Shown here piece by piece: positions 16,936 through 60,182 of a stretch of DNA of 64,000 bases. Positions within the stretch are counted from its first letter, which is position 1. Every line of letters starts with the position of its first letter. Under the pieces are notes generated by a model that worked only from the letters and a program-made list of their open reading frames with translations, searched no databases and was not told where the DNA came from. Source of the stretch: Scilla litardierei (lineage: Eukaryota; Streptophyta; Magnoliopsida; Asparagales; Asparagaceae). A program made the translations under genes and the position numbers. The stretch is taken from assembly GCA_030789695.1 (NCBI GenBank), contig CM061141.1, positions 271,963,655 to 272,027,654 of the forward strand, read 5' to 3'.

Positions 16936-17511
16936 TCACGTTGAGGAACCGATCGACTAGATGTCCATCTAGTCGGTCAACAACTCCTCATGGACCGACT
17001 AGTTTTTGTCAGGCTTTTTGCCTTGAGTTACTGTTTACGCTTAGTCGGTCTAAGTTCAACCACCGACAGACTAGTTATCGAACTAGTCGGTCAACACTTC
17101 TTCGCAGACCGACTAAGTACAGTGATCATTTTTCGCATCAGGTTACTGTTTACCGTTAGTCGGTCAAAGAACGAATACCGACCGACTAGTTGACGAACTA
17201 GTCGGTTAGGTCTCCTTCTCTGACCGACTAATCTTCAAAATATCTCGTTGACCACCTTTACCCTTTAGTCGGTCTATGAACACTGGCCGACCGACTAGGT
17301 TGCAAACTAGTCGGTCGACTAGCCTTCACAGACCGACTAACTCTATAAATTTTACAACAACCCTGTTCTCGGTTTGGGTTTTAGTCGGTCACAGTTATAC
17401 GACCGACCGACTAGTTTCCAAACTAGTCGGTCGACCGCCCTTCTCTGACCGACTAGTTGACCCCGAAACCCTAATTTCTGTGCTAGCCGCCGTTTCATTT
17501 TCTTATTTAAA
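16936..17511 (+). promoter_or_regulatory. TAGTCGGTC/GACCGACTA array upstream of TATA box
   Basis: Five modules, roughly 115 bp apart, lie at about 16936, 17040, 17154, 17264 and 17382. Each module reads TAGTCGGTC - about 15 bases - GACCGACTAGTT - 4 to 6 bases - AACTAGTCGGTC - about 15 bases - GACCGACTA, so it is two nested inverted repeats. Some linkers contain TTACTGTTTAC. The array ends about 45 bases before TATTTAAA. ACCGAC is the DRE/CRT core bound by plant CBF/DREB factors. An enhancer role is inferred from position and motif. Confidence 0.75.
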
Positions 17512-18457
17512 CGGGGCTTTCTCTTTCATTTCTACTGATTGTTTTCAGTCTCCATCTTCCCCAAACCTATTCCCCTACCTCTCACGTCCTCCCCTTTGCT
17601 CTTCCTCCATCCTTGCGCCCTCCATCTTCCACAAAGCTCTCCCTCTTCTCTCATTTCCCTTTCTTTTGCCCTAGCACGGAGTTCTCGTCTCAGATCCAGC
17701 AGCAACGACGCCAGGAGACGCTGAAATCTTCACCACCACCGGCGATCAACGTTCTCGCTGCGCTACCCGCGGCTTGGGAATTTCCGGACGACGTAAAGCT
17801 TCCACCCTTTCCAGATTGGACACCGGATCTTCGTGCAACTGTCAATTCCAGGTTGGTGCCCTAAATTCGTAGTAACCTCCACAATAGATGATCAAACCCT
17901 AAATAAAAGTCGCAACCTAATCAAACTAAATTTATTTTTCGCGGATCTTTAAAACGTTGTACAACCGTAGAAATCGACGAATGGACATTATGCATGCACA
18001 CATAGGATAGATCATCGATTAGGTCAATTCATTAAAAATGTGATTTTTGGATTGATTAGGATAGTCCCGATAACCTAGACATAACCCTAATAGGAATTAA
18101 TGAATCGTGATCTGACACCGTCACCGTGTCACGATTTTCAGACGCTCATCCGCCAACGAGACATTTGGACGAGGCGTACCAGGGAGACGACGCACTCGCC
18201 ACCACAGGCAAGTGTATCACTTGCGTTCTTGGCCATGTTTAGGCCTTCATCTTGTTAGGATTGTTAATTTAGAAACTTGAGAACCGGACGTGAAATAATA
18301 GCGTCCGGGACGCCTTTGATGGCTCAGATTTGACAACGAAATCTGAGTCCAACAACAACAATTTTTGACATCATAGGATTGACATGCGTGTGCGTGAGTT
18401 GTGGACACCCTAGTACAACCCCTCCTATTTTTTCGTGTCTTGTTCCTTTCCGTCTGC

Positions 18458-18640
18458 ACAGCCTGCGGGCAATAGGGCACTCGTCGAGCCAGAGCGAGTG
18501 ATCCCTTGTACTAGTTCACAGCCCGATGGGCAATTGGGCACTTGTCAAGCTAGAGCAGGTGATCCCATGTACCGATACACAGCTCAGAGAGCAATTGGGC
18601 ACTTGTCAAGCTAGAGCAAGTGATCCCATGTCTTGTCACG
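18458..18640 (+). repeat. Three tandem 61-bp hairpin units in the LTR leader
   Basis: Each unit has GGG-stem-loop-stem-AT-CCC. Stems are CACTCG/CGAGTG (18478-18500), CACTTG/CAGGTG and CACTTG/CAAGTG, around an 11-base loop. In the 3' LTR (about 25950-26125) the second stem reads CACCTG/CAGGTG. The paired bases change together, which supports selection on an RNA hairpin, although the units lie outside any coding frame. Confidence 0.75.
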
Positions 18641-19432
18641 ATTCTTAGGGTTATGGGGTAGGGTTGAGCGTGTAAGCGGCAAGAGGGACTGATCCCCCTC
18701 GAACCGAACAGGCGTGAACCCTTTCGTGTCTTGTCTTGTCTTGTCGTGTCTGGCTTCCGTGTTCCGTCTTGTTTTGACACCTGTAGGCTAGTCCCGTAGT
18801 CCATAGCACTCGCTATGACTACTACTTGTCTTGTTTACTTTCTTGTTGTGTTTCTTTCTGTTGTTAAAACCTCAACATGTTAATCAACCAGTAAAACGTT
18901 GTAAGTAAATGGTACACTTGTAGCTTGGTCTAATCTTTTCTTGTAGACCTTGCCTGACGTACAGTTCCTTCTTTTGGTGCTGTACGTTAGGGATTGAGCC
19001 AGAGTACGTGGAGGAGACTGACCTGCCTGCCAACGTGGAGCCAGAGGGTGTCGATCCTGAGTACGACCTCGAGGAGGATCAGAGTTAGAGACTTTTTAAT
19101 AGCAGATTCCAGAGGCGTTACTATCTTGTTGGGTGCGTAGCACCTTTTATGATTCTTTGTCTAGGTTGGGTGCTTGCACCATTAGATTTACTTTTCTGCT
19201 GTTGTAGCCCTTCGGGCGTTGAGACTTGGTACTCTTGATATGTTGGAATAAAATTTGTGATGTTCTTTCCTTCTTGTACTTTTATTGTTCTGTACTAACA
19301 TGCAGGGACCTGTACCTTTGCCTTGGTACCACACAGACGCTTATTGGGTCAGGGCTTCGTAGCTCTGTCCTAAGCGGGCCTAGTCACGCTTCGCCTCCGT
19401 TGTTTTGGGAAGCGGGGCGTGACAGGTTTTAG

Positions 19433-19450
19433 TGGTGGCCCATGCAGGTC
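19433..19450 (+). promoter_or_regulatory. Inner Tekay primer binding site, tRNA-Ile-like
   Basis: TGGTGGCCCATGCAGGTC lies 8 bases after the LTR end. It is complementary to the CCA tail, acceptor stem and T-arm of plant tRNA-Ile(AAU), whose 5' end I recall as GGCCCAT. The same 18 bases occur at the same distance in the outer Tekay. Many plant chromoviruses use initiator tRNA-Met, so this is an unusual primer. Confidence 0.75.
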
Positions 19451-24255: not shown

Positions 24256-26915
24256 TGTAACGGCTGGTTTTTGTATGATGAATATTATTTATATATATAT
24301 GCAATTGGTCGTCTTCTTTCTTTACTTCTCCATGCTCACATCTTAGTATAGGATCACTCTTGGAACTCATTAGAATCATCCTGAAGCTTCCCGCTTCATT
24401 TTGCGACTTCCTGTGCAAGTTAGCCGGTTCACGTTGAGGAACCGACCGACTAGATGTCCATCTAGTCAGTCAACAACTCCTCATGGATCGACTAGTTTTT
24501 GTCAGGCTTTTTCCCTTGAGTTACTGTTTACGCTTAGTCGGTCTAAGTTCAACCACCGACCGACTAGTTATCGAACTAGTCGGTCAACACTTCTTCGCAG
24601 ACCGACTAAGTACAGTGATCATTTTTCGCATCAGGTTACTGTTTACCGTTAGTCGGTCAAAGAACGAATACCGACCGACTAGTTGACGAACTAGTCGGTT
24701 AGGTCTCCTTCTCTGACCGACTAATCTTCAAAATATCTTGTTGACCACCTTTACCCTTTAGTCGGTCTATGAACACTGGCCGACCGACTAGGTTGCAAAC
24801 TAGTCGGTCGACTAGCCTTCACAGACTGACTAACTCTATAAATTTTACAATAACCCTGTTCTCGGTTTGGGTTTTAGTCGGTCACAGTTATACGACCGAC
24901 CGACTAGTTTCCAAACTAGTCGGTCGACCGCCCTTCTCTGACCGACTAGTTGACCCCGAAACCCTAATTTCTGTGCTAGCCATCGTTTCATTTTCTTATT
25001 TAAACGGGGCTTTCTCTTTCATTTCTCCTGATTGTTTTCAGTCTCCATCTTCCCCAAACCTATTCCCCTACCTCTCACGTCCTCCCCTTTGCTCTTCCTC
25101 CATCCTTGCGCCCTCCATCTTCCCCAAAGCTCTCCCTCTTCTCTCATTTCCCTTTCTTTTGCCCTAGCACGGAGTTCTCGTCTCAGATCCAGCAGCAACG
25201 ACGCCGGGAGACGCTGAAATCTTCACCACCACCGGTGATCAACGTTCTCGCTGCGCTACCCGCGGCTTGGGAATTTCAGGACGACGTAAAGCTTCCACCC
25301 TTTCCAGATTGGACACCGGATCTTCGTGCAACCGTCAATTCCAGGTTGGTGCCCTAAATTCGTAGTAACCTCCACAATAGATGATCAAACCCTAAATAAA
25401 AGTCGCAACCTAATCAAACTAAATTTACTTTTCGCGGATCTTTAAAACGTTGCACAACCGTAGAAATCGACGAATGGACATTATGCATGCACACATAGGA
25501 TAGATCGTCGATTAGGTCAATTCATTAAAAATGTGATTTTTGGATTGATTAGGATAGTCCCGATAACCTAGACACAACCCTAATAGGAATTATGAATCGT
25601 GATCTGACACCATCACCGTGTCACGATTTTCAGACGCTCATCTGCCAACGAGACATTTGGACGAGGCGTACCAGGGAGACGACGCACTCGCCACCACAGG
25701 CAAGTGTATCACTTGCATTCTTGGCCATGTTTAGGCCTTCATCTTGTTAGGATTGTTAATTTAGAAACTTGAGAACGGACGTGAAATGATAGCGTCCGGG
25801 ACGCCTTTGATGGCTTAGATTTGACAACGAAATCTGAGTCCAACAACAACAATTTTTTACATCATAGGATTGCCATGCGTGTGCGTGAGTTGTGGACACC
25901 CTAGTACAACCCCTCTTGTTTTGTCGTGTCTTGTTCCTTTCCGTCTGCACAGCCTGTGGGCAATAAGGCACTCGTCGAGCCAGAGCGAGTGATCCCTTGT
26001 ACTAGTTCATAGCCCGATGGGCAATTGGGCACCTGTCAAGCTAGAGCAGGTGATCCCATGTACCGATACACAGCTCAGAGAGCAATTGGGCACTTGTCAA
26101 GCTAGAGCAAGTGATCCCATGTCTTGTCACGATTCTTGGGGTTATATGGTAGGGTTGAGCGTGCACGCGGCAAGAGGGACTGATCCCCCTCGAACCGAAC
26201 AGGCGTGAACCCTTTCGTGTCTTGTCTTGTCTTGTCGTGTCTGGCTTCCGTGTTCCGTATTGTCTTGACACCTGTAGGCTAGTCCCGTAGTCCATAGCAC
26301 TCGCTATGACTACTACTTGTCTTGTTTACTTTCCTGTTGTGTTTCTTTCTGTTGTTAAAACCTCAGCATGTTAATCAACCAGTAAAACGTTGTAAGTAAA
26401 TGGTACACTTGTAGCTTGGTCTAATCTTTTCTTGTAGACCTTGCCTGATGTACAGTTCCTTCTTTTGGTGCTGTACGTCAGGGATTGAGCCAGAGTATGT
26501 GGAGGAGACTGACCTGCCTGCCGACGTGGAGCGAGAGGGCGTCGATCCCGAGCACGACCTCGAGGAGGATCAGAGTTAGAGACTTTTTAGTAGCAGATTC
26601 CAGAGGCGTTACTATCTTGTTGGGTGCATAGCACCTTTTATGATTCTTTGTCTAGGTTGGGTGCTTGCACCATTAGATTTACTTTTCTGCTGTTGTAGCC
26701 CTTCGGGCGTTGAAACTTGGTACTCTTGATATGTTGGAATAAAATTTGTGATGTTCTTTCCTTCTTGTACTTTTATTGTTCTGTACTAACATGCAGGGTC
26801 CTGTACCTTTGCCTTGGTACCATACAGACGCTTATTGGGTAAGGGCTTCGTAGCTCTGTCCTAAGCGGGCCTAGTCACGCTTCGCCTCCGTTGTTTTGGG
26901 AAGCGGGGCGTGACA
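24256..26915 (+). repeat. Inner Tekay 3' LTR (2660 bp)
   Basis: Near-identical to 16763-19424, with scattered substitutions. The palindrome array is at about 24440-24955, the TATTTAAA box at 24997-25004 and the hairpin units at about 25950-26125. It is followed by the ATAAA target duplication. Confidence 0.94.
24440..25004 (+). promoter_or_regulatory. TAGTCGGTC array and TATA box of the 3' LTR
   Basis: This is the second copy of the five-module array. A few motif copies differ from the 5' LTR, for example TAGTCAGTC near 24464 and GACTGACTA near 24826. These show single-base decay against an otherwise constant motif. Confidence 0.72.
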
Positions 26916-26920
26916 ATAAA

Positions 26921-28188
26921 TGACGGATCTAACTTCGTTGTCAAGCTAGTTCCTGAAATTGCGCCTAGGCGAGTATCATTTCGTCGCCTAGTCTCTTTTA
27001 CACCTACACAAGCAAATGGCCTAAGACATGGCCCAAAACCCTAAGTGGCAAGTTTCACTTGCCTAGCACCGAGGATGACGATCACGAAGGTTCGTCTCGC
27101 AAGCGCTAATCTATGGGGAAATTCGCTGTTAAGGAGAAACAATCATCGAAACAACATTCATTTTCATTAGGGTTTCACAAAAACACAAATGGGTTATGAG
27201 AATATTAAGAGATCGATTTATTACTGAATCGTTAGCGGAAGAACGATGTCGAGCAAGCACGGCGATGGAAGAACGATCCGGGAAACTAGGGTTCAGATCT
27301 GGAAATGGGGAGAAATTCTCGGGAAATGGGGTTTTGGGGATTTTTGGGGGTTTTCCGGCGACCCAGAGGTGGTGGCCGGCCAAAATGGAGAGGGAGAGTA
27401 GCTCTTGATGAAGGAGGAAGGCTAGGATTAGATGGATGATGATTTGGGAAAGAAGGAGGCTCAGGAGAAATGAAAGAAGAAAAGAAAAACGTTTGGGGGG
27501 TTTAAATAGGCACAGCCGGCGGCTGGGCAAACCCTTGATTTACGACAGCAGTTAGTCGGTCAAAGAAGGGTTGTTGACCGACTAGTTCAATAACTAGTCG
27601 GTCGGTCAACCAACTGTGACCGACTAAAACCAAACAGTAACTCAGGTTGTCGAAATGATCAAGGAATTAGTCGGTTAAAGAACAATGGCTGACCGACTAG
27701 TTTGCAACCTAGTCGGTCGGTGGTTGTTCTTGGACCGACTAACGATAAACAGTAACTTAGTTAAAATGTATCAAAGGAACTAGTCGGTCTGAGAGCAAGT
27801 TCTGACCGACTAGTTTCACATCTAGTCGGTCGGTGGTTGTTCTTAGACCGACTAAAAGTAAACAGTAACTCCTGTACAATTGATTCAATGAACTAGTCGG
27901 TTCCAGTAGAGTTCCTGACCGACTAGATCTCAATCTAGTCGGTTGGTCCCCCTTCTTGAACCAACTAAAGTGCACTAAAAGTGCTGAATTGAAGCGCGAA
28001 GTTCTAGGAAGATTCCCGCGGCTTCTAGGATCACTCTAACTCTAAAATATGAGCGATTTGAAGTTCGTCATGAGTGACTTACTCCAAGATCAACGATTCT
28101 AAGGAAGAAGCTAGAAAATCACGACGAAACGATCGAAATGAAAGCTACGAAGACGAAAACCACACATGAGGAGAAAATCCACCAAAAC

Positions 28189-28220
<32 letters not shown>

Positions 28221-28297: not shown

Positions 28298-29200
28298 TCA
28301 CGTGTCCAGAAACAAAAGTGGGTAGCGCTCTCGAATCTCATCCTCATTCTCCCAAGTAGACTCTCCTGGCGAGCCGTGTCGCCACATCACCCTCACAAGA
28401 TTGACAACCTTGTTCCGAAGTGACTTCTGATGCCTGTCCAGAATCTGCACTGGCTGCTGGTCATACGTCATATCAGGGCGAACGGTAATCTCCGAGAAAT
28501 CCACAGCATGAGATGGGTCGCTAATGTATCGACGAAGCTGCGACACATGGAAAACATTGTGAACTCCCTCCAAAGATGGCGGCAAGGCTAAGCGGTAGGC
28601 TACCTCGCCAACTTTCTCCAGAATGTCAAACGATCCAATGTATCGCGGGCTCAACTTCCCTCGCTTCCCAAAGAGAATCACACCACGATTCAGGGAAATC
28701 TTCAAGAACACATGGTCGCCTGGCTGAAACTCCAAAGGACGGCGTTTAGCATCCGCCCAATGCTTAAAACGGTCCTGAGCAATCCTCAACCTCTCCCGAA
28801 TGTTCCTGACAACATCCACGGCCTCCACAATCATCTTAGGTCCCAACAGCTTCCGATCACCAACGTCATCCCAACTCAACGGCGATCGACATTTCCTCCC
28901 ATACAGCGCGGCAAAAGGTGCCATGCCAATACTCGCTTGGAAGCTGTTGTTGTAGGAAAACTCTACCAGATGTAGATGGTCCTCCCACGAACCCTTGAAA
29001 TCCAACATGCACGCCCTCAGCATGTCCTCCAAGATCTGAATCGTCCTCTCAGACTGGCCATCCGTCTGCGGATGGTACGCCGTGCTGAAACTCAGACGCG
29101 TATCCAAACTCTTCTGCAAACTCTGCCAGAACTGAGATGTGAACCTCGTGTCTCTGTCTGACACGATACTCACAGGGACTCCGTGAAGTCGTACGACCTC
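28298..29200 (-). CDS. Outer Tekay integrase C-terminal part and chromodomain (exon 3)
   Basis: The frame is open with no stop. It carries catalytic Asp (VSDRDTRF) and Glu (GQSERTIQ), the GSFDILE segment and a chromodomain-like C-terminus ([26 protein letters not shown]). At the positions where the inner copy has TAG this copy has Gln (RIAQDRF and EFQPGDH). The exon starts at 29200 after the acceptor GTGCAG. Confidence 0.88.
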
Positions 29201-29272
29201 CTGCACGATTCACGTTACATCACTATCTAAACTAGGAAAAAGGAAATAGAAGCGGAGAGTAAAAGAATTTAC
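29201..29272 (-). other. Outer Tekay intron 2 inside integrase (72 bp)
   Basis: On the - strand it begins GTAAATTC and ends CGTGCAG. Splicing joins RRYME to EVVRLHG. Position and boundaries match intron 2 of the inner Tekay, while the middle has diverged. Confidence 0.8.
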
Positions 29273-31692
29273 CTCCATGTATCTCCTCGCTAGCGCCTCA
29301 GTGGACTGTCCCACTCGGAATGGAATAAAGTGCACGGATTTGGTCAATCGATCTACGATCACCCAAATCGTGTCATTCTGCTTCGGACTCCGAGGTAGTC
29401 CAGTCACGAAATCCATAGTGATGTGTTGCCACTTCCACTCCGGAATCGGAAGCGGTTGTAGCAACCCTGCCGTACGCTGATGCTCCGCCTTTACCTGCTG
29501 GCAAACCAAGCACTTGGCTACACTCCGAGCCACACTCCTCTTCATACCATGCCACCAAAAGTTCAGACGAAGATCCTTGTACATCTTGGTCCCACCAGGA
29601 TGCACAGAATACGGTGAACTGTGTGCCTCCACCATCAACTCCTCTCTAATATCCCCTGCTGGCACACACAACCTGGCTCCAAACCTCAGCGAGCCATCCT
29701 CATGAATCAAAAAGTCAGTCCACAGACCGGCTTCCACCTGCCCCCGAATCTGCACCAGATTCGGATCCTCAGCCTGGCCAGCCTTGATTCGATCCACGAT
29801 CGTCGATCGAATCTGCATAGTCATCAACGAAGAGGCCTCCCCAGGAAGAACGACCTCAACACCAGACTCGCAAAAATCCTACTGCAATCTCCACTGCGAA
29901 GTCAAAATAATCACCGCTGGAAGCCTACTCAGCGCATCAGGAACCACATTCACCTTGCCAGGGTGATACTGCAAATCAATCTCATAATCCGTCATAAGCT
30001 CCAACCATGTTCGCTGTCGCATGTTGAGCTCCTTCTGAGTGAAAATATACTTCAAGCTTTTTTGATCGGTGAAGATCTTCACTTTCTCACTCAGCAGGAA
30101 GTGCCTCCAAATCTTGAGTGCAAACACAACAGCAGCCAACTCTAAGTCATGCGTCGGGTAATTCTTCTCATTTGTTTTGAGCTGACGCGAAGCATAAGCC
30201 ACAACATGCCCGTGCTGATGCAATACACAACCGAGAACCTTGCCAGAAGCATCGCAAAAGATCTCAAATCCACCGCTGCGATCAGGCACAACAAGAATAG
30301 GGGCAGTCGTCAATCTCTCCCTCAGAACACCGAAAGCATTCTCACAATCACCCGACCAAACAAAAGGCACATCCTTCCGCGTCAATCTGGTCATCGGCTC
30401 GACGATACGGGAAAAGTCCTTAATGAAATGCCGATAGTAACCAGCAAGCCCAAGGAAACTCCGGATCTCAGACGCTGACTGCGGAACAGGCCACTCTCGA
30501 ATAGCCTTGATCTTCTCGGGATCCACTGAAATACCATCTCCAGTCACCACATGCCCGAGAAAAGCAACTCTGTCCAGCCAAAACTCGCACTTCGAAAACT
30601 TAACATACAGCCGATGCTTCCTCAAAATCTCCAATACCGTCCTCAAGTGCGAGGCATGCTCTTCCTCTGACTTTGAATAGATCAGAATGTCGTCAATAAA
30701 GATAACGACAAACTTATCCAAAAAGTCGTAGAAGATCAGATTCATCAGATTCATGAAAACTGCGGGTGCATTGGTTACACCGAAAGGCATAACCACAAAC
30801 TCGTAGTGTCCATACTTCATCCTGAATGCTGTCTTCGGAACATCTTCCTTCTTCACCTTCAGCTGATGATAACCACTCCTCAGATCCAACTTCAAAAACA
30901 CCCTCGAACCTCCAAGCTGATCAAAAATATCATCGATGCAAGGCAACGGGTATTTATTCTTGATGGTCACCGCATTCAACTCCCGATAGTCCACGTACAT
31001 GCGACGCGAACCATCCTTCTTCCTCACCAGCAGCACCGGTGCTCCCCACGGAGACACACTAGGATTGATATAACCCTTCTGCAAAAGCTCATCCAGCTGC
31101 TTCCGCAATTCCTCCAGCTCAGCGGGTGCCATACGATATGGCGCCTTCGAAATCGGTTGCGCTCCCGGAATAAGATCAATAGAAAATTCCAGAGCTCGAT
31201 CAGGTGGCAAACCAGACATCTCCTCGGGGAAGACGTCATCAAAGTCCCGCACAACTGCTGGCCTCTCCAGCTCCATCTGCATAGCCACAATCTCCACCGG
31301 TCTGGCCCGAAATCTGACAGGACCAAGCGAACTGCTACCTCGGCTGAACTCAAATACTGGATGTCTGGGAATCTCGAACACCACATTCTTCCTCCGATAG
31401 TCGATCGCAACATAGAAGCTCGCAAGCCAATCCATCCCAAGGACCGCATCATAGTTGATGATGTCGTGGACAATGAAATCAACGTAAAGCTCATGTCCAC
31501 AAACCACCAACGAGCAAGAATTGCAACCAAGATGCACCGAGACCACGCCATTCCCTGTAACGATATTCCAACTCTTGGAAAGAGGGGACATCGACAAGGA
31601 ATGCTTCTCCACGAAGCTCCGAGAAATAATGCACATCGATGCACCTGAGTCAAAGAGGACTCGTGCAGGAAATGTGCACACCAAAACCACAC
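29273..31692 (-). pseudogene. Outer Tekay protease-RT-RNase H-integrase N-terminal part (exon 2)
   Basis: This exon is a single frame of about 800 codons with one break, a TAG at 29879-29881 between RNase H and integrase where the inner copy has Gln (CAG). Protease [19 protein letters not shown] and FIDD, RNase H CDASGK and VPDALSRLP, and integrase CLVCQQ and TMDFVTGLP are all present. RNase H has TDQKSLKY where TDHKSLKY is usual. Confidence 0.9.
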
Positions 31693-31806
31693 CTAACAAG
31701 CAATTTAACAATCAAATCCTAGTCTAGCAAACAATCATGTTCAAGCAAAAAACATAATCTAACAATCAAAACTAGCTAGGAAAGTAACAGCTAGATTGAG
31801 GATTAC
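31693..31806 (-). other. Outer Tekay intron 1 at the gag/protease junction (114 bp)
   Basis: On the - strand it begins GTAATCCTC and ends GCTTGTTAG. Splicing joins VIAG to VVLV upstream of DSG. Unspliced, Gag ends 11 codons into the intron. It occupies the same codon as in the inner Tekay. Confidence 0.82.
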
Positions 31807-37155: not shown

Positions 37156-38315
37156 TGACGTGCATTTATATTTCATATATTTGCGCACGTTTTCTTCCGT
37201 GTTTTTCCGCTATTTTCTGCCGTCTTGTACTTGTTTTCTCGTGTTTTCTTATTTTCTTTCACTTTTTCGTGTTTTTGTATATTTGCAGGAGTTTACCGAC
37301 GTAGGGGGATATAAAACGACGATATCATGAGTCCCCGGAGCAACGGGAGGTGTCACACGTGATCCAGGGGGTCAAACGACGAAGATCGCATCTTTCAGCC
37401 CCTCACCCGACCGGTTGGTCACTTCCAACCGATCGGGTGATGCACGCGTACACCACCCGGACACAAGTTGGAGCGGCCAAGAAGTCACCCGGTCGGTTCA
37501 GAGACCTGTTCAAATGCCCCAACTCTCTAGATTCTGATGGTGAATGCCAACTGATCGAGTGACCTTCACCCGATCGGTTCACCTGTAGCCGATTCTCCGA
37601 AGCCAAGACACGGAGAGATCAACCGACCGGTTCACCCGACGGCACGAAGATCCAACCGATCAGCTTCAACCCTCAACCGACCGTGCCGTGTGACCGAGTG
37701 AAGTCCTATTCTGAGCCGCCGAAGAAACGAAGTAGGTCACCCGATCGGTTGACTCTTCAACCGATCGGGTGATATCGTATTCTATATATAGGACCCCTAG
37801 GTTTTCCAGAAACGGGAGTTGTTATTTTTTGCTGTTTTTTCTCTCTCTTGACGGCTGTAATTTTTTAGATATTTGTAAGTCTTCTGATATTTGTTAAACT
37901 TTAATATAGTGTTATTAGCATTGCTCTTACTGCTTTTCAATCGCTTGATCATGTTTCTAACGGTCGATTTCAATTTAGATTGCTTTTTACTAAATATGTG
38001 TGAGTAGTTCCCAAATCTGGGATTCTGGTGGAAACCCCTTCGTGGGCTCTTCCCGATGCGTCCATAGGACTACGAAATCGATAGGGATTAGGAATCTACC
38101 GGTTATGCGGGGTGTTTTATTGTCATCGGCGGGAAAAAGACCGCCTTTGACCGTTGGCCAAGGGGGACTAAACTTGGCGGTTGACTCACTAGCCATAGCT
38201 CACGCCCTTAGCGTAAACGTCGAATCCTAGCGCGTGGGAGCGACATGATGAGATGTTGGGAGTTATCGTTGCGAGCTTAGTGCTCCCGGAGTCGGTCAGT
38301 GTTAATGGACACGTC
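37156..38315 (+). repeat. LTR fragment of element B family (+ strand)
   Basis: It starts TGACGTGCATTTATA and matches, in opposite orientation, the LTR ending at 43419 over about 1.15 kb. It carries a palindrome array (37400-37770) and a TATA box. It breaks off after GTTAATGGACACG, so the LTR 3' end is missing. The next bases belong to the - strand interior of element B, so the two LTRs are inverted relative to each other. Confidence 0.7.
37400..37790 (+). promoter_or_regulatory. ACCGATCGGGTGA array upstream of TATA box
   Basis: Repeated words such as ACCGATCGGGTGA, ACCCGATCGGTT and ACCGACCGG end just before TATATATA at 37783-37790. The centre CCGATCGG is palindromic. Layout and pentamer ACCGA/TCGGT resemble the Tekay arrays, but the surrounding sequence is different. 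Confidence 0.6.
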
Positions 38316-47879: not shown

Positions 47880-48155
47880 TCTTAGTCGGTTCAAGTTCAT
47901 TAGCCGACCGACTAGTTTCAGTTCTAGTCGGTCAGTGATTGAACTCAGACCGACTAAATCTTGCCTTTGTTTTGACAATCTGTTACTGTTTGCAGTTAGT
48001 CGGTCTTAGCTCATTGGCCGATCGACTAGATTGCACTCTAGTCGGTCAGCACTTGAACTTTGACCGACTAGATCTGCAAGGGCATTTCTGTCTTTGACTC
48101 TTTGAATCGTTTTATAGCCTCTCCGCACCGATTAGTTTTCATTCTAATCGGTGCG
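47880..48155 (+). promoter_or_regulatory. TAGTCGGTC array and TATA-like box upstream of the extra ORF
   Basis: Two complete modules (about 47882-47957 and 47996-48072) have the Tekay pattern, including the linker GTTACTGTTTGCAGTTAGTCGGTC at their join. TTTTATAG follows at 48110-48117, and a degenerate third palindrome (ACCGATTAG...CTAATCGGT) at 48127-48150. The extra ORF starts about 310 bp further on. A role as a separate promoter for that ORF is inferred. Confidence 0.6.
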
Positions 48156-48426: not shown

Positions 48427-49968
48427 ATGGCGAGAACACGCATTCCTATCCGTCCCTCTAGTCCGTCTCCCATGACCGTCGAATCTCCTCCTACCGACCC
48501 TCCTCAACCCAAACGCCGCGCCAAATCGACTCGTCCATCCTTCGCTTCGCCTCCTCTTAAGAAGAAGAGGATGGCTACTTCTAAGCCTAGAGCCCGATCA
48601 TCTTCACAACCCAAGCCTAGCTCCTTTTGTGCACCCACTCCTCCCACTTCTGACTCCGACAAAGAGTATATTCCTGAGTCTGAGCCTACCAAGAAGGCTC
48701 CTACTCCTCCTCCTCGTTCTTCCTCTCGTCAGTCGAAGGGGAAGTCTCCCATGCCTTTGGGTGGTGTCGATATCTCGTTGTGTCACGATGACCCGATGTG
48801 TCTAGTGGCATACAATTGTATTGAGCTTTGTCCTTTGATTTTGGAGCACTTTGTCCAGTTTTCTGACTTTCCACATCTCGCAGATCTCCTCTCCTATAGC
48901 GGCCTATTATATTATCTTCGCCATGATCCCAAGGCGAATCCTCATCCGTACCCCAGGCTCGTCAAATTGTTCTATGCTAATCGAGTACGGGGTGAGTATA
49001 ATGACACCCACTCCATTGAGACCACTGTCTTGGGGACACATATTGTCCTCACGGCAGAGATTTTAGGGGAGTTGATTGGTGTCTCATCCTCTGGCCTGCT
49101 TCCTTCTGATATCTCCGTGGAGAATATCCACGATCTTAACCAGACCATGCTTTCTAAGGTGTTCCATGTCATTCCTCCCGCCATGATTGGCGTCCCCTCG
49201 AAATCATTTAAGCCAAATGCGTGGGTCTTGAATCTCATTCTGAAGTCGTGTCTTCTACCGAAGTACGGCTTCTCTAGCTTGCCCTCTCAGCCGTTCCTCA
49301 AGCTTATCTACGCTCTTTTCATAGGGAGCGAGATAAATTGGGCACGCATTATCCTTGATAAGATGGATTCCTTTGATTGCATAAGGAAATCCACCAAGTC
49401 TGCCCATATTCCTTATCCTTGTCTATTGACTCTCGTTTTCCGTCATTTTGGCGTCCCTCTCCCTCCCGATGATCAGCGTCCTTTGGGTCCTCCCCTGAAC
49501 GCGACTGCCGTCAAGAAGTCTCTTGCGGCGATGTGTCACGTTCAGAGGACTACCCCTGCTGCTGCTCCTGCTCCTCCTCTTCCTTCACTCTATGAGTTTT
49601 CAGTTTTCCTGAGACGTCAGGAGTCTCGTATTTCTCGTTGTGAGGAGATGCTTGCTCGCATCTGCGAGTATCTGGATATTGATGTTCCTCCTTCAGTTTC
49701 TGACAAGGAGGAAATGGATGATGCTGATCTCAAGGAGCTTGTTGGTTCTCCTGTTCGTGCCCCAGAGGGTACGTCTGCTACTACTACTTCTGCTGGTGCT
49801 CCCGAGAGCACACCTGCTGCCACCATTTCTTCGGTGGATACTTCTTCTGGTGCTCCCAAGACCACTCCTGTTGCCACTCTCCCTTCGGTTGTCACTCCTG
49901 CCATTCCCGAGACCACCACCTCTTTTGTAGAGCCTGCTGCTGCTGCTGACCCTGACTCCTCCGCCTAA
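48427..49968 (+). CDS. SIRE-associated extra ORF (ORF3), function unknown
   Basis: Uninterrupted frame of about 513 codons from ATGGCGAGAACACGC. The first ~110 residues are basic and Pro/Ser-rich (KRRAKSTRPS). A central globular part (SDFPHLADLL, LVKLFYANRVRGEYND, LIGVSSSGLLPSDIS) resembles the plant retroelement domain annotated as putative plant transposon protein. Near residue 390 a short helical stretch (FLRRQESRISRCEEMLARI) is followed by an Ala/Thr/Pro/Ser-rich tail. No signal peptide or membrane segment is clear, so an envelope role is not supported. It is intact while pol is frameshifted. Met 48406 upstream is an alternative start. Confidence 0.75.
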   Translation: MARTRIPIRPSSPSPMTVESPPTDPPQPKRRAKSTRPSFASPPLKKKRMATSKPRARSSSQPKPSSFCAPTPPTSDSDKEYIPESEPTKKAPTPPPRSSSRQSKGKSPMPLGGVDISLCHDDPMCLVAYNCIELCPLILEHFVQFSDFPHLADLLSYSGLLYYLRHDPKANPHPYPRLVKLFYANRVRGEYNDTHSIETTVLGTHIVLTAEILGELIGVSSSGLLPSDISVENIHDLNQTMLSKVFHVIPPAMIGVPSKSFKPNAWVLNLILKSCLLPKYGFSSLPSQPFLKLIYALFIGSEINWARIILDKMDSFDCIRKSTKSAHIPYPCLLTLVFRHFGVPLPPDDQRPLGPPLNATAVKKSLAAMCHVQRTTPAAAPAPPLPSLYEFSVFLRRQESRISRCEEMLARICEYLDIDVPPSVSDKEEMDDADLKELVGSPVRAPEGTSATTTSAGAPESTPAATISSVDTSSGAPKTTPVATLPSVVTPAIPETTTSFVEPAAAADPDSSA

Positions 49969-50879: not shown

Positions 50880-52600
50880 TGTTGAGTATTGATTCTCTGG
50901 ATTTGGTTTTGATGATGAACAAACATAAATATTGTGAACTAACTCTTTGTGAGCGCAGTTATGGAGATCATCGCCAAAATCCTACGTATATCAAAAGCGA
51001 CGTCTCAAGACTTCTCAAAGCGTGTGATCATATGCCTGAAGCTTCGTTGAAGCTCTAGGAGCATTAATGAAGTCAAGAGATTCGGATTGAAGCTTTGAAG
51101 ACGGGTCGTCAAGTTTATTTTATACTCTTCTAGCTTCTTTTCGTAGAATGTTAAGCCTTGAGTAGGTCTTACATTATAATCTTCATAACGCTCATATCTT
51201 AGAGCTAGGATTATATTAGAAGCCCAAACAAACTTTTCCGAAGATTCACGCTTCATTTTGCGGCTTCTAGTGCATCTTAGTTGGTTCAAGAAGAAGAACC
51301 AACCGACTAGATTGTCATCTAGTCGGTTAAGAATCCTTCTTAAACCGACTAGATTGTCTTGCTCAATTCAGCATCTTCACTGTTGACCAATTAGCAGGTC
51401 CAAGAAGGTTCACCGACCGACTAGTTGTCAAACTAGTCGGTTTGGAATCCTTCTTAGACCGACTAGTTATACTTTCACTTTTCAGCCTGAGCCACTGTTT
51501 ACTGTTAGTCGGTCCAAGAACATTCATCGACTGGCTAGTTGTGAAACTAGTCGGTTGGAATTTGTTCTTAGACCGATTAGTTCTCTTGTGTTCAGCTTAT
51601 TGTTTTTCAACTCCTTAGTCGGTCAAAGAACACTCACCGACCGACTAGTTGTCAAACTAGTCGGTTGGCAAGTCTTCTTAGACAGACTAGTTCTATATCT
51701 CCTGAACTATCTTTCTTGGCTGTCAACCTCTTAGTCGGTCCAAGAAGAATCACCGACCGACTAGTTGAGAAACTAATTGGTCAGTGATCCTTCTTTGACC
51801 GATTAGACTGCTTCAGAAATAGATCCGTTGGAGCATTAATTGCACGAATTTTCCCTCTCTCTTCTCTCTATCCTATATTTACTTGTGATGCTTCTTCATA
51901 GCATTCAAGGCTGATATTATTGAGACTTTGAGAATCAAAGAGAGAGCTTTTAATTCTAATTTCCAAGCTGACTCATTTCTCACAAGAATCTCTCCAAACT
52001 TCTTGAGCCCTAATTTCCTCAAGAGAGATTCTCTTCATTGTGAGCTTTCCAAGCCAAGAGCTTGATTCAAAGTCACCAACTCCATCCTAGCCTTCGATCG
52101 CTGTTCATCTTGGTGGAGCTAGGGTTTGGTGACATTCTTCTTCATCAAAATCCTTCTTGCCCTAAAATCGTAAGTTTACTCAAGGCATAGGATTTTGTTG
52201 GTAAGCATTTCATTGTTTCATTTACATTGCTATTTCAGTTTATCTCTCGGTTGTGAGAGAAGTTTGTGATCCCGGTTTGTGGGAGTCACATTTTGATTTG
52301 TGTATGATTTGATCTTGTATAGGTTTTCTACAAGAATTTCATAGTGCAAAGCTTGAGTTAGAGGATTCTAACTCAAGTAGCCGGAGGAGATCCGGGTGTT
52401 TGGGACGTAGGATCACCAGGAACAAGTTGGGGAGACTTGGGTGGATACGAACCCGTTATATCGCTTTGTTTGCAATTGTCTTTCTTTGTTGTCAATATTT
52501 TCATTCCGCATTGTTGGTTGAGTTTGCATGATAATTAGGAATTATACTCTTGATTATTTTAAAGTACTATTCACCCCTAGTACTTGTGCAGTAGCTATCA
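50880..52600 (+). repeat. SIRE-like 3' LTR (about 1.72 kb)
   Basis: It starts TGTTGAGTATTGATTC after the polypurine tract and appears to end GTAGCTATCA at 52600, where the ATHILA-like reading frame on the other strand begins. An alternative end is CTTGTGCA at 52590. It carries the palindrome array and a TATATTTA box. Confidence 0.75.
51285..51881 (+). promoter_or_regulatory. TAGTCGGTT/C array upstream of TATA box in SIRE-like LTR
   Basis: Five modules about 112 bp apart (near 51290, 51390, 51505, 51615, 51730) have the Tekay pattern ...AGTCGGTC - GACCGACTAGTT - AACTAGTCGGTT - GACCGACTAG. One linker reads CTGTTTACTGTTAGTCGGTC. The array ends about 70 bases before TATATTTA (51874-51881). A Ty1/copia LTR thus shares the module of Ty3/gypsy Tekay LTRs. 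Confidence 0.72.
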
Positions 52601-54290
52601 GGGCATTACATTTCTCGGTGAGGACGACCGATGCCGGTGTGAAAGTGGTGCCAGTGAGTGGTGTAGGGTACCCTAAGGAGATAACCAGAGAGGCTAGAAG
52701 GTCCCGAAGCGGTAGAAGGGTGATGGCTGGTTCCTGATCTGAAAAGTGTGGAGCAGTAGGCTCAGGAGCAGACGGGATGACCATGCCCTCAGATATGGGT
52801 GCGGAGGAGAAAGTGGCAGAGGCCTCAGGGCAGAGGGTGGTGACAATCTCAGTGGTCCCGACGGTGGTGGTGGTGGTGACAGAGGTGGCGAAGGTAGTGC
52901 CTCCTGGTGGCAGACGGTGTACAGGCTGTGCTGGCTGAGCAGCCACGATGGCAGCCAGGTCGGACTCCTCGTCCTCAGAAGAGCTGAGTACCCAGTCGTC
53001 GGCGTCAACGTCGACGGGTGCTCTAGGGGGCTCGAGGACGTGGAGGGCGGGAAGTGGGAAGACTCTAACAATCATCCAGCATTGCTGGACTGGCCCTACA
53101 AGGGTGAGGTGGGGGGGTGGGAAGGACAAAATGGGGTGTGTGATGGGTGCCTAAAAGATAGGCCCAGTGACGTTCCCCATATGGCCGGATGATGTGTTTG
53201 TGCTCAAGCACACCCAAAGTCAAGCGCGTATGGCCAGGGGGTCACTAGGCCATCAAGAAGATCTATGCCCAGCATCCGTGTGAAGATGGTGAAAAATCCA
53301 CTGCAGCAGATATCAGTGGCGTAGCAGGTGTGGGCGGTCTGTTGGAGGCGGTAACACAGCCAGTGTGCTGCATCGGAAAGGACGAAGGGGTGGAGGGAGC
53401 CGTCCCGGTGGTACCGCAGTGGTCGGGTCATTCCCATGAGATGGAAAAGCTCAGGTAGGGACATAGTCTCGACCTCTGGCCTGCAGAAAATGGTGGTGGC
53501 TAGGTGTCGCTGGGCATAGCAAAGGCAAGGATGCACAATGCATGATGCCTTCGCCCGACTGGGGCGGTAATGGTCCAGACCAGAAATGCGAAGCCAGAAA
53601 GCAGAGGCATCGAAAGTGGCTAGATCGTAGTCTGAGGAGAAGGCAGTGGGGTGGTCAGGGACGGCTGGAAAGTGGAAGTGAGCGTAGATCTGGACGTACA
53701 TGATCACGAAGTCATGGTCAAGTAGCCTGAAGCTAATTCCGTCGCACGCCGAGGTGCAGGCAATGGAACTCAATGCCTCTAGAGTGAGGCGGGTGTAGGT
53801 GGGGGCATGGGCTGCGAGGAGTCAGTCGAAACCGATGGTGCAGTAAAGCCAATGGACCCCCTACAGGAGTCCTAGGCATCGGTTGGTAGGGAGGTGGATG
53901 AACTGTGTGGGAACGATCCTCTGCTGCGACAGTGCAACGAAGCGGTCGCGGTATGCATCGTCCCGAAAGGTTATGCCGAATGTCCGCACCCGCAGCAACA
54001 GAGCGGTGGGAGGGGCAGATGGTGCGGTAGTGGGGATGGGGGCGGAAGTGGCAGGGATGTGTGGGCGATGTGGTGGTTGAGCGTGTGCGGGTAGTACGGC
54101 GAGAGGGATGGTGGTGGTGTAATCAGAAGATTAGGACACGGACGAAGAATTGCCCATGTACTCCTCCTCGGTGGAGGGTGTAGCGGCACGGTGAGTGCCG
54201 TGTGCGGGCTGAGAAGAGGAGGCGTCAGTGGCCTTCCTCTTCCCACGTCGTGCAGGTGTGGGCTGCCTCCCACTAGTGCGAGGCGGCATC
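52601..54290 (-). pseudogene. ATHILA ORF1-like protein
   Basis: Met at 54290 starts MPPRTSGRQPTPARRGKRK, a basic N-terminus. After a frame change the central part (53773-53204) has LTLEALSSIA, FWLRISGL and the RPSRAKASCI segment typical of the plant ATHILA ORF-1 family. The C-terminal part (53129-52601) is Ser/Thr/Pro-rich and acidic. Two or more frame changes and stops interrupt it, and it is cut at the SIRE LTR. The Gly-rich + strand ORFs here are antisense shadows. Confidence 0.7.
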
Positions 54291-54529
54291 GTGCTACCGG
54301 CACGTGGATTGTGTCGGGATAAAAATAAAGAGAGGGTAGAGTTTACCAACATGAAGGTCGTGGCAAGAGCGATGTGATCGGGCACATGACTACTGCTAGT
54401 CAGAGGAATCTCCCAAGCTGCTCCAGGACGTTTCCTCCTCTGTAGGCGTAATGTACCTGAAATAGAAGGAAAAAGTAATATCAGCCGGATCAAAAGTAGT
54501 GTGTAGGGGAAGATGTGTGTGGGAGCTCG

Positions 54530-55400
54530 ACCGAGCACAAGCTAAGCTCGGTCGAGTAGGTAGGGTGGCGGGGTTGCATTGGTGGGATGGTTACTCGACC
54601 GAGCAGTAATTGTGCTTGGTCGGTAGGTCGGATGGGGAGGGGGTTACCCTAGGGCTATTGGGAGGAGGCAGGGGTGTTTTAATAGGAAAGGGGGTATGGA
54701 TGGGGAGAGGGAGGGGTGGGGGTGGAATGGCATTGTGGGCAGCGCCGCTGGCACTGGGTGATTCTGGCAGCGTTGCTCCGGTGACGGCCAGGGCAGAGGG
54801 GGGCGAATTTGGACTGGAGATGGAGGAATATGGAGAGATGGGTGGATGGAGGAAGAAAATAGGTGGAGAGAGAGGACCGGTGTGGCGTGCAGTCGGCAGC
54901 GTGGCCAGCGGAGGGGACGGTGGTGACAGCAGTTTGGGTCGAGTAGGTGAAGGGAGTTGGGGATGCTCGGGCAGAGGAATTTGGGGGAAAAAAGGGATTA
55001 GGGTATAATAAAGTCGAATCAGGTTTTGATAAACCCGACTCGTTCAGAATGTGGGCCCCGGACGATTAAAGCTCCTGCTATTCGGCCGAGCAGCATAACT
55101 GCTCGGTCAAGTCAGAAAATAAAATAATCGAAATTGAGGTTTAGAACACTCCCTCGGCTACTCGATCGAGTAGGGGCTACTCGGGCCATGTAGGCAGAAC
55201 GCCATTTGTTTATTATTTCTCTGTGCTTTCCTCAGCTCGGTCGAGCAGATGGATACTCGGTCGAGCAGGCAGCTACTCGACCGAGTAAGTGCTACTCAGG
55301 CCGCGTAGGCAGAGCACCATTTTTCATTGCTTTTCCTGCACTCTCTGCTACTCGACCGAGTAAGTGCATACTCTGTCGCGTCATCGCTTACTCTTTTCCC
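54530..55400 (-). promoter_or_regulatory. CTCGACCGAG array and TATA-like box upstream of the ATHILA ORF
   Basis: Many copies of CTCGACCGAGTA/TACTCGGTCGAG and variants lie in 55060-55375. A TATTATA box follows (- strand, 55004-55012), then a CT-rich leader with further copies near 54530-54640 and a possible splice acceptor (TTCTATTTCAG, about 54460). This may be an internal promoter for the ORF or an embedded LTR piece. Confidence 0.5.
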
Positions 55401-58231: not shown

Positions 58232-58370
58232 AACAACTTAGAGAGTACCATGAGTAACAAGATGATAATAAATAAAAAGAATAAAAATAAAAAGGTTGGA
58301 AGGATATGAAATGATAAGATTCGCTAGCAGATTCTTCAAAATAAAAATAAACTGAGATACACCGTAACTA

Positions 58371-58388
58371 TCCCCAGCAACGGCGCCA
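58371..58388 (-). promoter_or_regulatory. Primer binding site, tRNA-Asp
   Basis: On the - strand TGGCGCCGTTGCTGGGGA lies 5 bases from the LTR end (GGACGCATCA). It matches tRNA-Asp with one mismatch. Confidence 0.88.
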
Positions 58389-58393
58389 AAACT

Positions 58394-60182
58394 TGATGCG
58401 TCCAGAACTTACACCTAAAATCTACCTGGCAGCTTCACAGTCGCCATGCGCGGTATGGTTCCTAGGCGTCGACTTTGGTTTTATCCGCAAGCAGACGGTG
58501 TCAAATTATAGTGTGAAAGGTTGTCGAATCCTACAGGGACAGTGACAATGTATTGGAGTCTCAGTTTATTTCTATATCTCAGAATGAGATAGTAGTCGAT
58601 TGGGGGATTGTTTGTTTGATGTTGTTGTTGGTCCAATATAGAGAAACTAGGGCCTTAGGGATCACTGCTAGGATCGTTGGAGATCGATGTTAGAATAGTA
58701 TTCTTACGTTGCATTGGTTTTATGGGATTGATCTCTCAGCTCATGCCACCTCGTGGGTTATAGCTTCGAGGTACTTAGTAACTCTCATTGACGCAATAGC
58801 GGTAGCCGTCAATATAGTGATATAGTTCGTTGGGGGATCCCCTCAAGACACGAGCCAGACATGGTCACGAGCCTTGGTTGGATCCACTAACTCCCTAATT
58901 AAATCCTATGGATACTCCTTAATCTAATCAATTCCATCGACCGTAGGCATGATCTCAGTACGAGTTCCCCTAGAGATTTGGGTGTATCGACCAAAATACT
59001 CCCTCTTGCTCCCAACACAACATAAAACTCCAGATCTACATCTCTTTCCTAAGGTCTTAGGGCTAAACCATCAGCCCTAGAGAAGATTACTCACATATAG
59101 TAATTATAACAAATAAAAATGCACTTTTTGCCATAGAAAACATCGTAGCAATTAAATCAAACAAGAAATGATGATCTTACGTATCGAAAACCGAGAAAGA
59201 ACGATACCCAATAGAGAATAAAAGAATTCCCACAGATTCCAAGATGCAAGAGACAAGAAAAATTCGATCTTTTTCAATGACGGCTCAATCCAAAACCCTA
59301 GATATAAAACAACTAATTAAATCTCCCCTTTCTTAAAATTAATTAAAAGCTGAAAAGGAACTCCCTAAAATGTCAGGAAAAATCCCTTAACTACATAGAG
59401 GGTGGACCCCTAGAAAAAAATCTGAAAATCTGGATGTTTGGGGCCCATACGTCGCCAACCGAGTCGGCTGCTCGATCGAGTATGCACCTGCTCGGTCAAG
59501 CAGGTACCTTAGCTGCTGCTGGCTAGAAAAGGGGTCCGGGCTACTCAGTCAAGTAGCCTGCCTACTCAGTCGAGTTGTCAATAGGTCGGAGCTCTCCTTC
59601 CAAAGTGTCGCTCTGCCTACTCGGGTCGAGTAGGTCATGCTCGGTCGAGTCGTCAGAGGATCAAATTTTCTTCTCCAAAATGTCACTCTGCCTGCTCGGG
59701 TCGAGTAGGTCCTGCTCGGTTGAGCAGGATGCTGGTGGGAGGGGGCTCGAAGACTGGATCGACTCGAGCCGAGTCGTCACTCTGCTCAGTCGAGTAGGAT
59801 GCGGTAATTCTTCCTGCCGGACTCGTGGGTCAGTCAACCGAGTAGCTTGTGCTACTCGGGTCGAGTTGCCTGTGAAAGCTGCATATGCTTGGGCTTTGAC
59901 TCTTTTCTCTCGCTAGCTTCTCCTCTTCTTCTTCCATATGCTTCTGAACCTTGGCGAACTCCTGTAGAGTCTCGCCAACGGCATCATGGACATGCCGGAT
60001 GTGTCCATGTCCCAAAATGGCTTCGAATCGCTCCAAAATTCCTGAAAATCCACAAAGCTCTACGAAACTCGAATATAGTGTTAGAAGTGCAGTATCATAT
60101 GAAAATACAGGATTTGGATGCGGATATGACATGAAATGCAATGAAATGATGCTATGAAAAGATGGAAAATATGGACACATCA
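58394..60182 (-). repeat. Athila-type 5' LTR (1789 bp)
   Basis: On the + strand it begins TGATGCGTCC and ends GGACACATCA, a near-perfect 10-bp terminal inverted repeat. TATA-like TTTTATA (- strand, 59303-59309) lies just downstream of a CTCGGTCGAG array (59455-59870). The bases after 60182 are a + strand LTR remnant. Confidence 0.85.
59303..59870 (-). promoter_or_regulatory. CTCGGTCGAG array and TATA box of Athila-type LTR
   Basis: About a dozen words such as CTGCTCGATCGAGTA, CTCGGTCGAG and CTCGGGTCGAGTAG lie upstream (- strand) of TTTTATATC. CTCG...CGAG makes each copy palindromic. The same word type fills 55060-55375. Confidence 0.6.

What the first reader, a model, noticed from the sequence alone, without database searches (positions are those of the whole stretch)
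16936..59870. Promoter-proximal nested palindrome arrays with a common ACCGA/TCGGT core in several unrelated LTR families
Each LTR family here carries an array of short inverted repeats immediately upstream of its TATA box. Words: TAGTCGGTC (Tekay, SIRE), ACCGATCGGGTGA (element B), CTCGACCGAG (Athila-type at 58394-60182), and CCGTTCGAT-N4-ATCGAACGG (Athila array and element A). The first three share the pentamer ACCGA followed by a family-specific base (ACCGAC, ACCGAT, ACCGAG). Families with otherwise unrelated sequence thus have the same architecture: several to a dozen palindromic units ending about 10-150 bases before TATA. This looks like a class of LTR enhancer or structural element that I cannot match to anything described.
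Basis: partly seen in the sequence, partly recalled or inferred. Interest (0 to 1): 0.9.

Follow-up and report, generated by a model that had tools for sequence, protein, structure and literature searches.

The report
Promoter hairpin arrays shared across retrotransposons
Several plant retrotransposons in this stretch of DNA carry arrays of mirror-image sequence blocks just upstream of their predicted promoters, and one copia-type and two gypsy-type elements hold the same alignable array, which likely works as an on-switch that was passed between them; the array type itself was already described in one group, the Sireviruses.

Summary
The arrays are real and far beyond chance, but the kind is known. 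Bousios et al. 2010 (PMC2829016) described palindromic CGG-CCG "RM boxes" upstream of the TATA box in Sirevirus (SIRE) LTRs and again upstream of the ENV gene. What goes beyond that paper: (1) two Ty3 chromovirus families carry the same array. With sites masked it still aligns to the SIRE LTR (z 29-61), 110-150 bp of non-array flank included, and some units group by position across superfamilies: one homologous block, not convergence. (2) The unit is a fixed 74-bp dyad with four TAGTCGGTC sites spaced 23/19/23 bp in 25 of 25 units; its arms covary in the spacers. (3) An Athila-type element and element B show a related architecture with other words (site pairs 19-23 bp apart), and Athila too has arrays before an internal ORF. 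The shared ACCGA pentamer is weaker than claimed: 9 of 17 Athila sites carry it, and element A has another geometry. Most likely a cis-regulatory array bound by host factors; the factor and any activity are untested.

The parts
16928..17455 (+). TAGTCGGTC array, 5 units of 74 bp, in left LTR (16762-19424) of chromovirus E
   Evidence: sites at 23/19/23 in every unit; LTR pair 97.6%
24421..24948 (+). same array in right LTR (24255-26915) of E
27553..27967 (-). TAGTCGGTC array, 4 units, in the F LTR copy that E interrupts (15651-16764 plus 26916-28209)
34826..35240 (-). same array in the other F LTR (33081-35481)
51278..51805 (+). TAGTCGGTC array, 5 units, in SIRE 3' LTR (about 50880-52600; the 3' end is read from the terminal CA, no second LTR in the window)
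   Evidence: PPT at the LTR junction
51128..51277 (+). non-array flank shared with the F LTR (148 bp) and, in its right part, the E LTR (110 bp)
   Evidence: local alignment z 25 (F) and 16.6 (E)
47883..48071 (+). second, internal TAGTCGGTC array of SIRE, 2 full units; a weaker site pair follows at 48126-48153
48427..49968 (+). extra ORF of SIRE in the ENV position, PF20167
44534..47634 (+). SIRE pol region (two overlapping ORFs): integrase before RT = Ty1 order
   Evidence: no Pfam match for the 46783-47634 ORF
28298..31711 (-). F pol: protease-RT-RNaseH, integrase, chromodomain = Ty3 order
37404..37771 (+). element B array, copy 1 (CACCCGATCGGTTG)
42806..43173 (-). element B array, copy 2
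59471..59865 (-). Athila-type LTR array (CTCGGTCGAG-like pairs) in LTR 58394-60182
54526..55380 (-). internal Athila-type arrays (54526-54603 and 55081-55380) upstream of the ORF from 54289
52600..54289 (-). broken ORF of the Athila-type element, PF03078 in 53204-53821
3133..3440 (+). element A array (CCGTTCGAT-N4-ATCGAACGG), different geometry; also near 11819 and 36298-36490 (extent read by eye)

Best explanation
A copia-type SIRE element and two gypsy-type chromovirus families in this window carry one alignable promoter-proximal array of the kind called RM boxes in Sireviruses, and it likely acts as an enhancer that a host DNA-binding protein uses to drive the LTR promoter and, from a second array, the element's extra gene. 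Shown here: each unit is a 74-bp dyad with four 9-bp sites at fixed 23/19/23 bp spacing; sites are conserved (0.93-0.96) while spacers and linkers drift; several units match by position across superfamilies, so the array already had more than one unit when it was shared; arrays sit just before TATA-like sequences in the LTRs and before the ENV-position ORF. Inferred: the block crossed the Ty1/Ty3 boundary by recombination (probably from SIRE, where such boxes are old, to the chromoviruses); binding is by dimers or tetramers on sites about two helical turns apart; the ACCGAC core makes an AP2/ERF (DREB-type) factor a candidate only. Arm complementarity in the spacers shows that the hairpin is also kept up, by selection on structure or by copying of one arm from the other.
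For: Homology: blastn 67.9% over 647 bp (E LTR 57-695 to SIRE LTR 287-927, 4e-83) and 71.2% over 576 bp for F; with sites masked z 28.7 (E-S), 60.6 (F-S), 36.1 (E-F) against 300 single-base shuffles each; flank alone z 16.6, 25.0 and 8.0. Position-wise grouping: unit 1 of E, F, SIRE in one fork (86/99, with internal unit 1 on a long branch), E5+F4 (100/99), E4+SIRE4 (81/75); 8 of 13 inner branches are open and only one is starred. Linkers 49/50/44/51 in E against 49/49/45/51 in SIRE. Geometry: 25 of 25 units 23/19/23; 23 of 25 units given to MAFFT align with no gap over 74 columns. Conservation over 16 non-redundant units (linkers were compared without gaps, which lowers their figure). ACCGAC/GTCGGT: 97 in 2606 bp of arrays, 28 in the other 61394 bp. 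Covariation: own-arm spacer pairing 0.562 against 0.466, P 0.00005, within elements 0.0003; both-side changes 45 against 27.8 (1 of 500). Parallel design: Athila and B site pairs 19-23 bp apart (6/11, 4/7, 4/9, 3/9, 1/2 of adjacent distances; P 0.00025, 0.0004, 0.004, 0.037, 0.17); B sites 124/139 identical between copies, rest 207/294. Published precedent: PMC2829016 sections 9 and 11.
Against: No expression, binding, TSS or small-RNA data. One window only: one SIRE copy with one LTR, 5' part missing; the host genome could not be searched. TATA of the internal SIRE array and of the Athila LTR is weak. With sites masked, the internal SIRE array barely aligns to the others (z 2.9, 3.9, -0.1), so its kinship rests on sites, geometry and linker words. 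The SIRE array does not reach the usual CpG-island GC content (GC 0.42, o/e 0.81). The TAG flank of the site is as invariant as its core, which an ordinary DRE site (consensus recalled) does not ask for; and in tomato Rider a CBF site in U3 did not bring cold induction. Two of five covariation measures do not exceed shuffles, and the sites themselves show no covariation (P 0.14). Direction of transfer is not shown. Spacing P values treat tandem units as independent; their centres were typed by hand, include sites with 1-4 mismatches, and leave out one 2-mismatch hit (54934).
Confidence: 0.62

Rival explanations
1. The hairpin itself is the functional object: the 74-nt stem works in the RNA (the 3' U3 and the internal array are expected in the genomic RNA) or as a DNA cruciform, for example in RNA stability, packaging or 3' processing; protein sites are secondary.
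For: Whole 74-bp unit is one imperfect hairpin with compensatory spacer changes; single-strand DNA folds z -6.4 to -7.6 in 4 of 4 units folded, of 25.
Against: Site letters are far more conserved (0.93-0.96) than pairing alone needs, since the partly paired spacers drift; position tracks promoters; mismatch types (site pairs GT 15, AC 6; all pairs GT 21, AC 54) do not settle an RNA strand bias.
Confidence: 0.2
2. Quasi-palindrome correction: reverse transcriptase or replication template switching keeps copying one arm onto the other, so palindromes persist as by-products without function.
For: Would explain arm covariation without selection and growth of tandem units.
Against: Does not explain position before promoters in LTRs and before internal ORFs, nor site letters kept across superfamilies while spacers drift.
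Confidence: 0.1
3. Convergence: Tekay-type and SIRE elements built TAGTCGGTC arrays independently because the same host factor selects the same site.
For: Athila and element B show that similar designs with other words can arise.
Against: Alignable spacers and 110-150 bp of flank, matching linkers, position-wise unit kinship.
Confidence: 0.04
4. Small-RNA liability reading: palindromes are mainly hairpin sources of siRNAs by which the host silences the elements.
For: Maize Copia LTR palindromes and hairpins are small-RNA hotspots, and hairpins peak in CHH methylation (passages of PMC10760457 and PMC5311732).
Against: An element gains nothing from keeping such a target; the PMC10760457 authors themselves suspect a cost of loss related to cis-regulatory function.
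Confidence: 0.04

Closest known systems
Sirevirus RM boxes (Bousios et al. 2010, PMC2829016; abstract, sections 9 and 11, passages)
   Same: Multi-copy palindromic CGG/CCG motifs in the upper part of the LTR before TATA, and more copies before the ENV-position gene; similar cores in print (Barbara TCGGTCYCACCGA, Osr10 CGGTCTGACCG, Vitis CGGTCGACCG).
   Different: Here the CGG and CCG halves are separate 9-bp sites in a fixed 74-bp four-site dyad, and the array also occurs in Ty3 chromoviruses; the paper calls RM Sirevirus-specific, having compared Ty1/copia elements.
5' CpG islands of Del (Tekay) LTRs (Cruz et al. 2014, PMC4029996; passages read)
   Same: Variable CG-rich block in the 5' part of Del LTRs; the paper relates such blocks to CpG-rich regions before TATA.
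   Different: No palindromes or tandem repeats are mentioned (0 hits for 'palindrom', 'tandem repeat', 'inverted repeat'); the TAGTCGGTC arrays here have GC 0.42-0.47.
Tnt1 U3 enhancer boxes and stress-responsive LTRs (Tnt1 boxes recalled; Rider PMC6762207, passages read)
   Same: Cis elements in U3 upstream of TATA that call host factors.
   Different: As far as recalled or read, no four-site dyad and no sharing across superfamilies.
Grande gene23 with its own promoter (PMC7264820, passages read)
   Same: Accessory gene of a plant LTR element transcribed from a separate internal promoter.
   Different: Antisense gene, and no array shared with the LTR reported in the passages read.

Membership tests
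Sirevirus (SIRE), for the element at 43430-52600 | Ty1/copia gene order and RVT_2 | tested here: met
   rve before RVT_2 in ORF 44534-46867
Sirevirus (SIRE), for the element at 43430-52600 | Multiple PPT copies before the 3' LTR | tested here: met
   GGGGGAG at 50586, 50670, 50871
Sirevirus (SIRE), for the element at 43430-52600 | Inverted repeat around the PPT/3' LTR junction | tested here: met
   22-bp arms, 19 of 22 complementary; score 32, reached by 1 of 1000 shuffles; exact published position not compared
Sirevirus (SIRE), for the element at 43430-52600 | Paired LTRs and PBS junction | not testable with these tools
   5' part is missing from the window
Sirevirus RM boxes (SIRE arrays) | At least 8 copies, clustered in the upper LTR, close before TATA | tested here: met
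   20 sites in the LTR array, from base 399 of a ~1720-bp LTR, 68 bp to a TATA-like sequence
Sirevirus RM boxes (SIRE arrays) | Compact palindromic box with CGG-CCG core | tested here: inconclusive
   CGG and CCG sites alternate as a dyad, but the 9-bp sites are 10-14 bp apart, not joined as in the printed boxes
Sirevirus RM boxes (SIRE arrays) | Further copies upstream of ENV | tested here: met
   8 sites at 47883-48071, ORF from 48427; that the ORF is an ENV gene is by position only
Sirevirus RM boxes (SIRE arrays) | RM cluster forms a CpG island | tested here: not met
   SIRE LTR array GC 0.42, CpG o/e 0.81; no CpGplot run
Sirevirus RM boxes (E and F arrays) | Host element is a Sirevirus | tested here: not met
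   E and F are Ty3: RVP_2, RVT_1, RNaseH, Integrase_H2C2; chromodomain in F
Sirevirus RM boxes (Athila-type arrays) | CGG-CCG core in one box | tested here: not met
   0 of 17 sites (found with CTC-N3-5-GAG) hold both CGG and CCG
Tekay/Del lineage (E and F) | Chromodomain chromovirus with long LTRs | tested here: inconclusive
   Chromo match E 0.00037 in F, below the curated cut-off (20.8 against 25.1 bits), none seen in the E ORFs scanned; LTRs 2.4-2.7 kb
Tekay/Del lineage (E and F) | RT phylogenetic placement | not tested
DRE/CRT (DREB-bound) elements | RCCGAC core | tested here: met
   97 ACCGAC/GTCGGT in arrays; consensus recalled
DRE/CRT (DREB-bound) elements | Binding by DREB and stress induction | not testable with these tools
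   no binding or expression data

The most novel reading that the evidence does not exclude
Plant LTR retrotransposons of both superfamilies trade a ready-made promoter cassette: a multi-unit array of self-complementary 74-bp dyads crossed between Ty1 Sireviruses and Ty3 chromoviruses as one block, and Athila-type elements built the same two-position layout (U3 plus the promoter of an accessory gene) with different words, so RM arrays are a general promoter class that is kept up as hairpins and as protein sites at once.
Probability: 0.45. Interest if true: 0.75.

Novelty: new variant of a known kind. Interest (0 to 1): 0.55.

Why it matters
LTR promoters decide which elements escape silencing. 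A promoter array held in common by two superfamilies would mean that regulatory parts of retrotransposons evolve apart from their genes and that one host factor could wake unrelated families together. The exact 23/19/23 spacing, the arm covariation and the second array before the ENV-position gene turn a 2010 suggestion (an internal ENV promoter) into a set of precise, testable predictions.

Tried and rejected
Search of the host genome for the motif: not completed. IMG/VR scan for GACCGACTA-N10-TAGTCGGTC: 2 contigs, each with a single hairpin (one followed by a T run), no array in the stretches held. Rfam: no match at gathering scores. ORF of SIRE: one weak homologue, Cephalotus, among the 7995 candidates scored; not alike to the Athila ORF piece; no clear transmembrane stretch (best 19-residue hydropathy 1.6), so 'ENV-like' is by position only. 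Host identity: the 120 RT matches listed (of 7972) have 36-69% identity (Asparagus 69%), so only 'an angiosperm'. Nested insertion of a Tekay LTR inside the SIRE LTR: rejected, because LTR parts before and after the block do not match between SIRE and E or F (z -1.3 to 2.7 in five of six comparisons; one 48-bp F-SIRE stretch that ends in CCCTAATTTCC has z 5.0). ACCGA as the unifying core: weakened (9 of 17 Athila sites). Motif strings in the literature: 20 of 269 and 12 of 128 papers were listed, none with a title on LTR elements; texts not opened. The statement that I know of no report of cross-superfamily RM sharing rests on the listings and on passages of PMC2829016 only; Bousios 2016 in Genome Research is not held and I know it from citations in PMC10760457.
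Full report
What is in the window. The sequence is a nest of plant LTR retrotransposons. Element E (+ strand, LTRs 16762-19424 and 24255-26915, 97.6% identical) sits inside one LTR of element F (- strand, LTRs 15651-16764 plus 26916-28209, and 33081-35481). Both are Ty3: aspartic protease, RVT_1, RNase H and Integrase_H2C2, with a chromodomain match in F that is below Pfam's cut-off. A SIRE-type Ty1 element runs from about 43430 to 52600 (5' part missing): integrase before RVT_2, three GGGGGAG tracts before the 3' LTR and an inverted repeat around the junction (19 of 22 bases, 1 of 1000 shuffles as good), as reported for Sireviruses (PMC2829016). An Athila-type element lies on the - strand (LTR 58394-60182, PBS at 58376, gag match in 57609-58058, weak protease match in 56064-56534), and two copies of a further element (B) at about 37.1-38.3 and 42.0-43.4 kb.

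The array unit. All TAGTCGGT and ACCGACTA words of the window lie in six arrays. Scanning with up to two mismatches gives, in 25 of 25 units, four sites in the order forward, reverse, forward, reverse with centre distances 23, 19 and 23 bp; units are joined by linkers of 44-51 bp, centre to centre. Over 16 non-redundant units the sites are 0.93-0.96 conserved, the spacers 0.67-0.72 and the linkers about 0.5, the last compared without gaps. MAFFT aligned 23 of the 25 units (two of the right E LTR left out) over 74 columns without a gap.

A dyad whose arms covary. The whole unit has one dyad axis. Counted as a 36-pair stem on 22 distinct rows, 78.2% of cells pair against 74.1% in shuffles; cells changed on both sides are 45 against 27.8 (1 of 500 as high), the covariation score 0.156 against 0.105 (0 of 500), and slid registers give 0.03-0.08; the two other measures (pairs and types with changes) do not exceed shuffles. 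These rows include both LTRs of E and F. A stricter test on 16 non-redundant units, pairing each unit's left spacer with its own or another unit's right spacer, gives 0.562 against 0.466 (P 0.00005; 0.0003 when shuffled only within an element), while the sites, which hardly vary, show nothing (P 0.14). So something keeps the arms alike: selection on structure, or arm-to-arm copying. I cannot tell which.

One block in two superfamilies. With every site masked, E, F and the SIRE LTR still align (z 36.1 E-F, 28.7 E-SIRE, 60.6 F-SIRE; 300 single-base shuffles each). The non-array flank just upstream aligns as well (z 8.0, 16.6, 25.0). Unmasked, E LTR 57-695 matches SIRE LTR 287-927 (67.9%, 4e-83) and F LTR 93-656 matches SIRE 249-810 (71.2%, 4e-86). 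LTR parts outside the block do not match between SIRE and E or F, except one 48-bp F-SIRE stretch (z 5.0). Some units group by position across superfamilies: first units together (86/99, with the long-branch internal unit 1 drawn in), E5 with F4 (100/99), E4 with SIRE4 (81/75); the tree is otherwise poorly resolved (8 of 13 inner branches open, one starred). Hence the array was probably shared when it already had several units. Direction is not shown; that 13 Sireviruses of various plants carry such boxes makes SIRE the likelier donor.

Two positions in one element. SIRE has a second array at 47883-48071, between the end of pol and the extra ORF 48427-49968 (PF20167). It has the same geometry and the linker word GTTACTGTTT, but with sites masked aligns only weakly (z 2.9, 3.9, -0.1). 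The Athila-type element repeats the design with its own word: pairs of CTCGGTCGAG-like palindromes in the LTR (59471-59865) and again at 54526-54603 and 55081-55380, the nearest 236 bp upstream of the ATG (54289) of a broken ORF with a PF03078 match. The two ORFs are not alike.

What is common to the families. Taking 19-23 bp from the TAGTCGGTC arrays, adjacent sites fall in that range in 6 of 11 (Athila LTR, P 0.00025), 4 of 7 and 1 of 2 (Athila internal; P 0.0004 and 0.17), 4 of 9 and 3 of 9 (element B; P 0.004 and 0.037). These P values treat tandem units as independent; the centres were typed by hand, some sites have 1-4 mismatches to the word, and one 2-mismatch Athila hit (54934) was left out. 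In element B sites (placed on copy 1) are 0.89 identical between the two copies and the rest 0.70. ACCGA/TCGGT itself occurs in 9 of 17 Athila sites. Element A uses CCGTTCGAT-N4-ATCGAACGG with 13-bp centre distance and does not belong.

Comparison with what is known. Bousios et al. 2010 (outline and abstract, sections 9 and 11 in full, other passages) describe palindromic RM boxes in 13 Sireviruses, 12 of them with a CGG-CCG signature, upstream of TATA, and upstream of ENV in nine; they call the motif Sirevirus-specific and suggest an internal ENV promoter. That covers the SIRE part of the finding. [quoted passage not shown] Del LTRs of some groups have a variable 5' CpG island (passages of PMC4029996). 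I found no report of the same array in a Sirevirus and a chromovirus in the listings of my searches; most subscription papers are not held.

Mechanism. I commit to a cis-regulatory array bound by host factors, with sites about two helical turns apart, serving the LTR promoter and a second, internal promoter. Shown: position, geometry, conservation, homology. Inferred: binding, activation, transfer route. ACCGAC is the DRE core (recalled), and 97 of 125 copies in the window lie in the arrays, but the equally conserved TAG flank means that the factor may be another.

Noticed in passing
1-5134 and 8688-13820: 5.1-kb direct repeat, 99% identical, 8.69 kb apart, with pol domains in and between the copies: looks like two element copies in tandem that share an LTR (Pfam).
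   Followed up: no
3028-3630 against 35984-36606: In element A the palindrome array region gave no blastn match between the two copies although its flanks did (91.5% and 77%): fast array turnover with the motif type kept.
   Followed up: partly
18467-18631 and 25957-26122: 61-bp tandem repeat, 2.7 copies, inside both LTRs of E, downstream of the array.
   Followed up: no
62751-63000 and 45501-45750: Two further peaks of inverted repeats (3 each against 0.12-0.15 expected), one inside SIRE pol.
   Followed up: no
17466-17474, 24959-24967, 48167-48175: Telobox-like AAACCCTAA words between array and TATA in both E LTRs and just after the TATA-like sequence of the internal SIRE array (the word also occurs at five other + strand places).
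   Followed up: no
48427-49968: Intact 513-residue ORF with PF20167 in the ENV position; only one weak homologue (Cephalotus) among the 7995 candidates scored in a 5.8-billion protein search.
   Followed up: partly
52600-58393: Athila-type element keeps gag and weak protease matches and a PF03078 ORF, but no RT or integrase match was seen in the - strand ORFs scanned between them: probably a deletion derivative.
   Followed up: no
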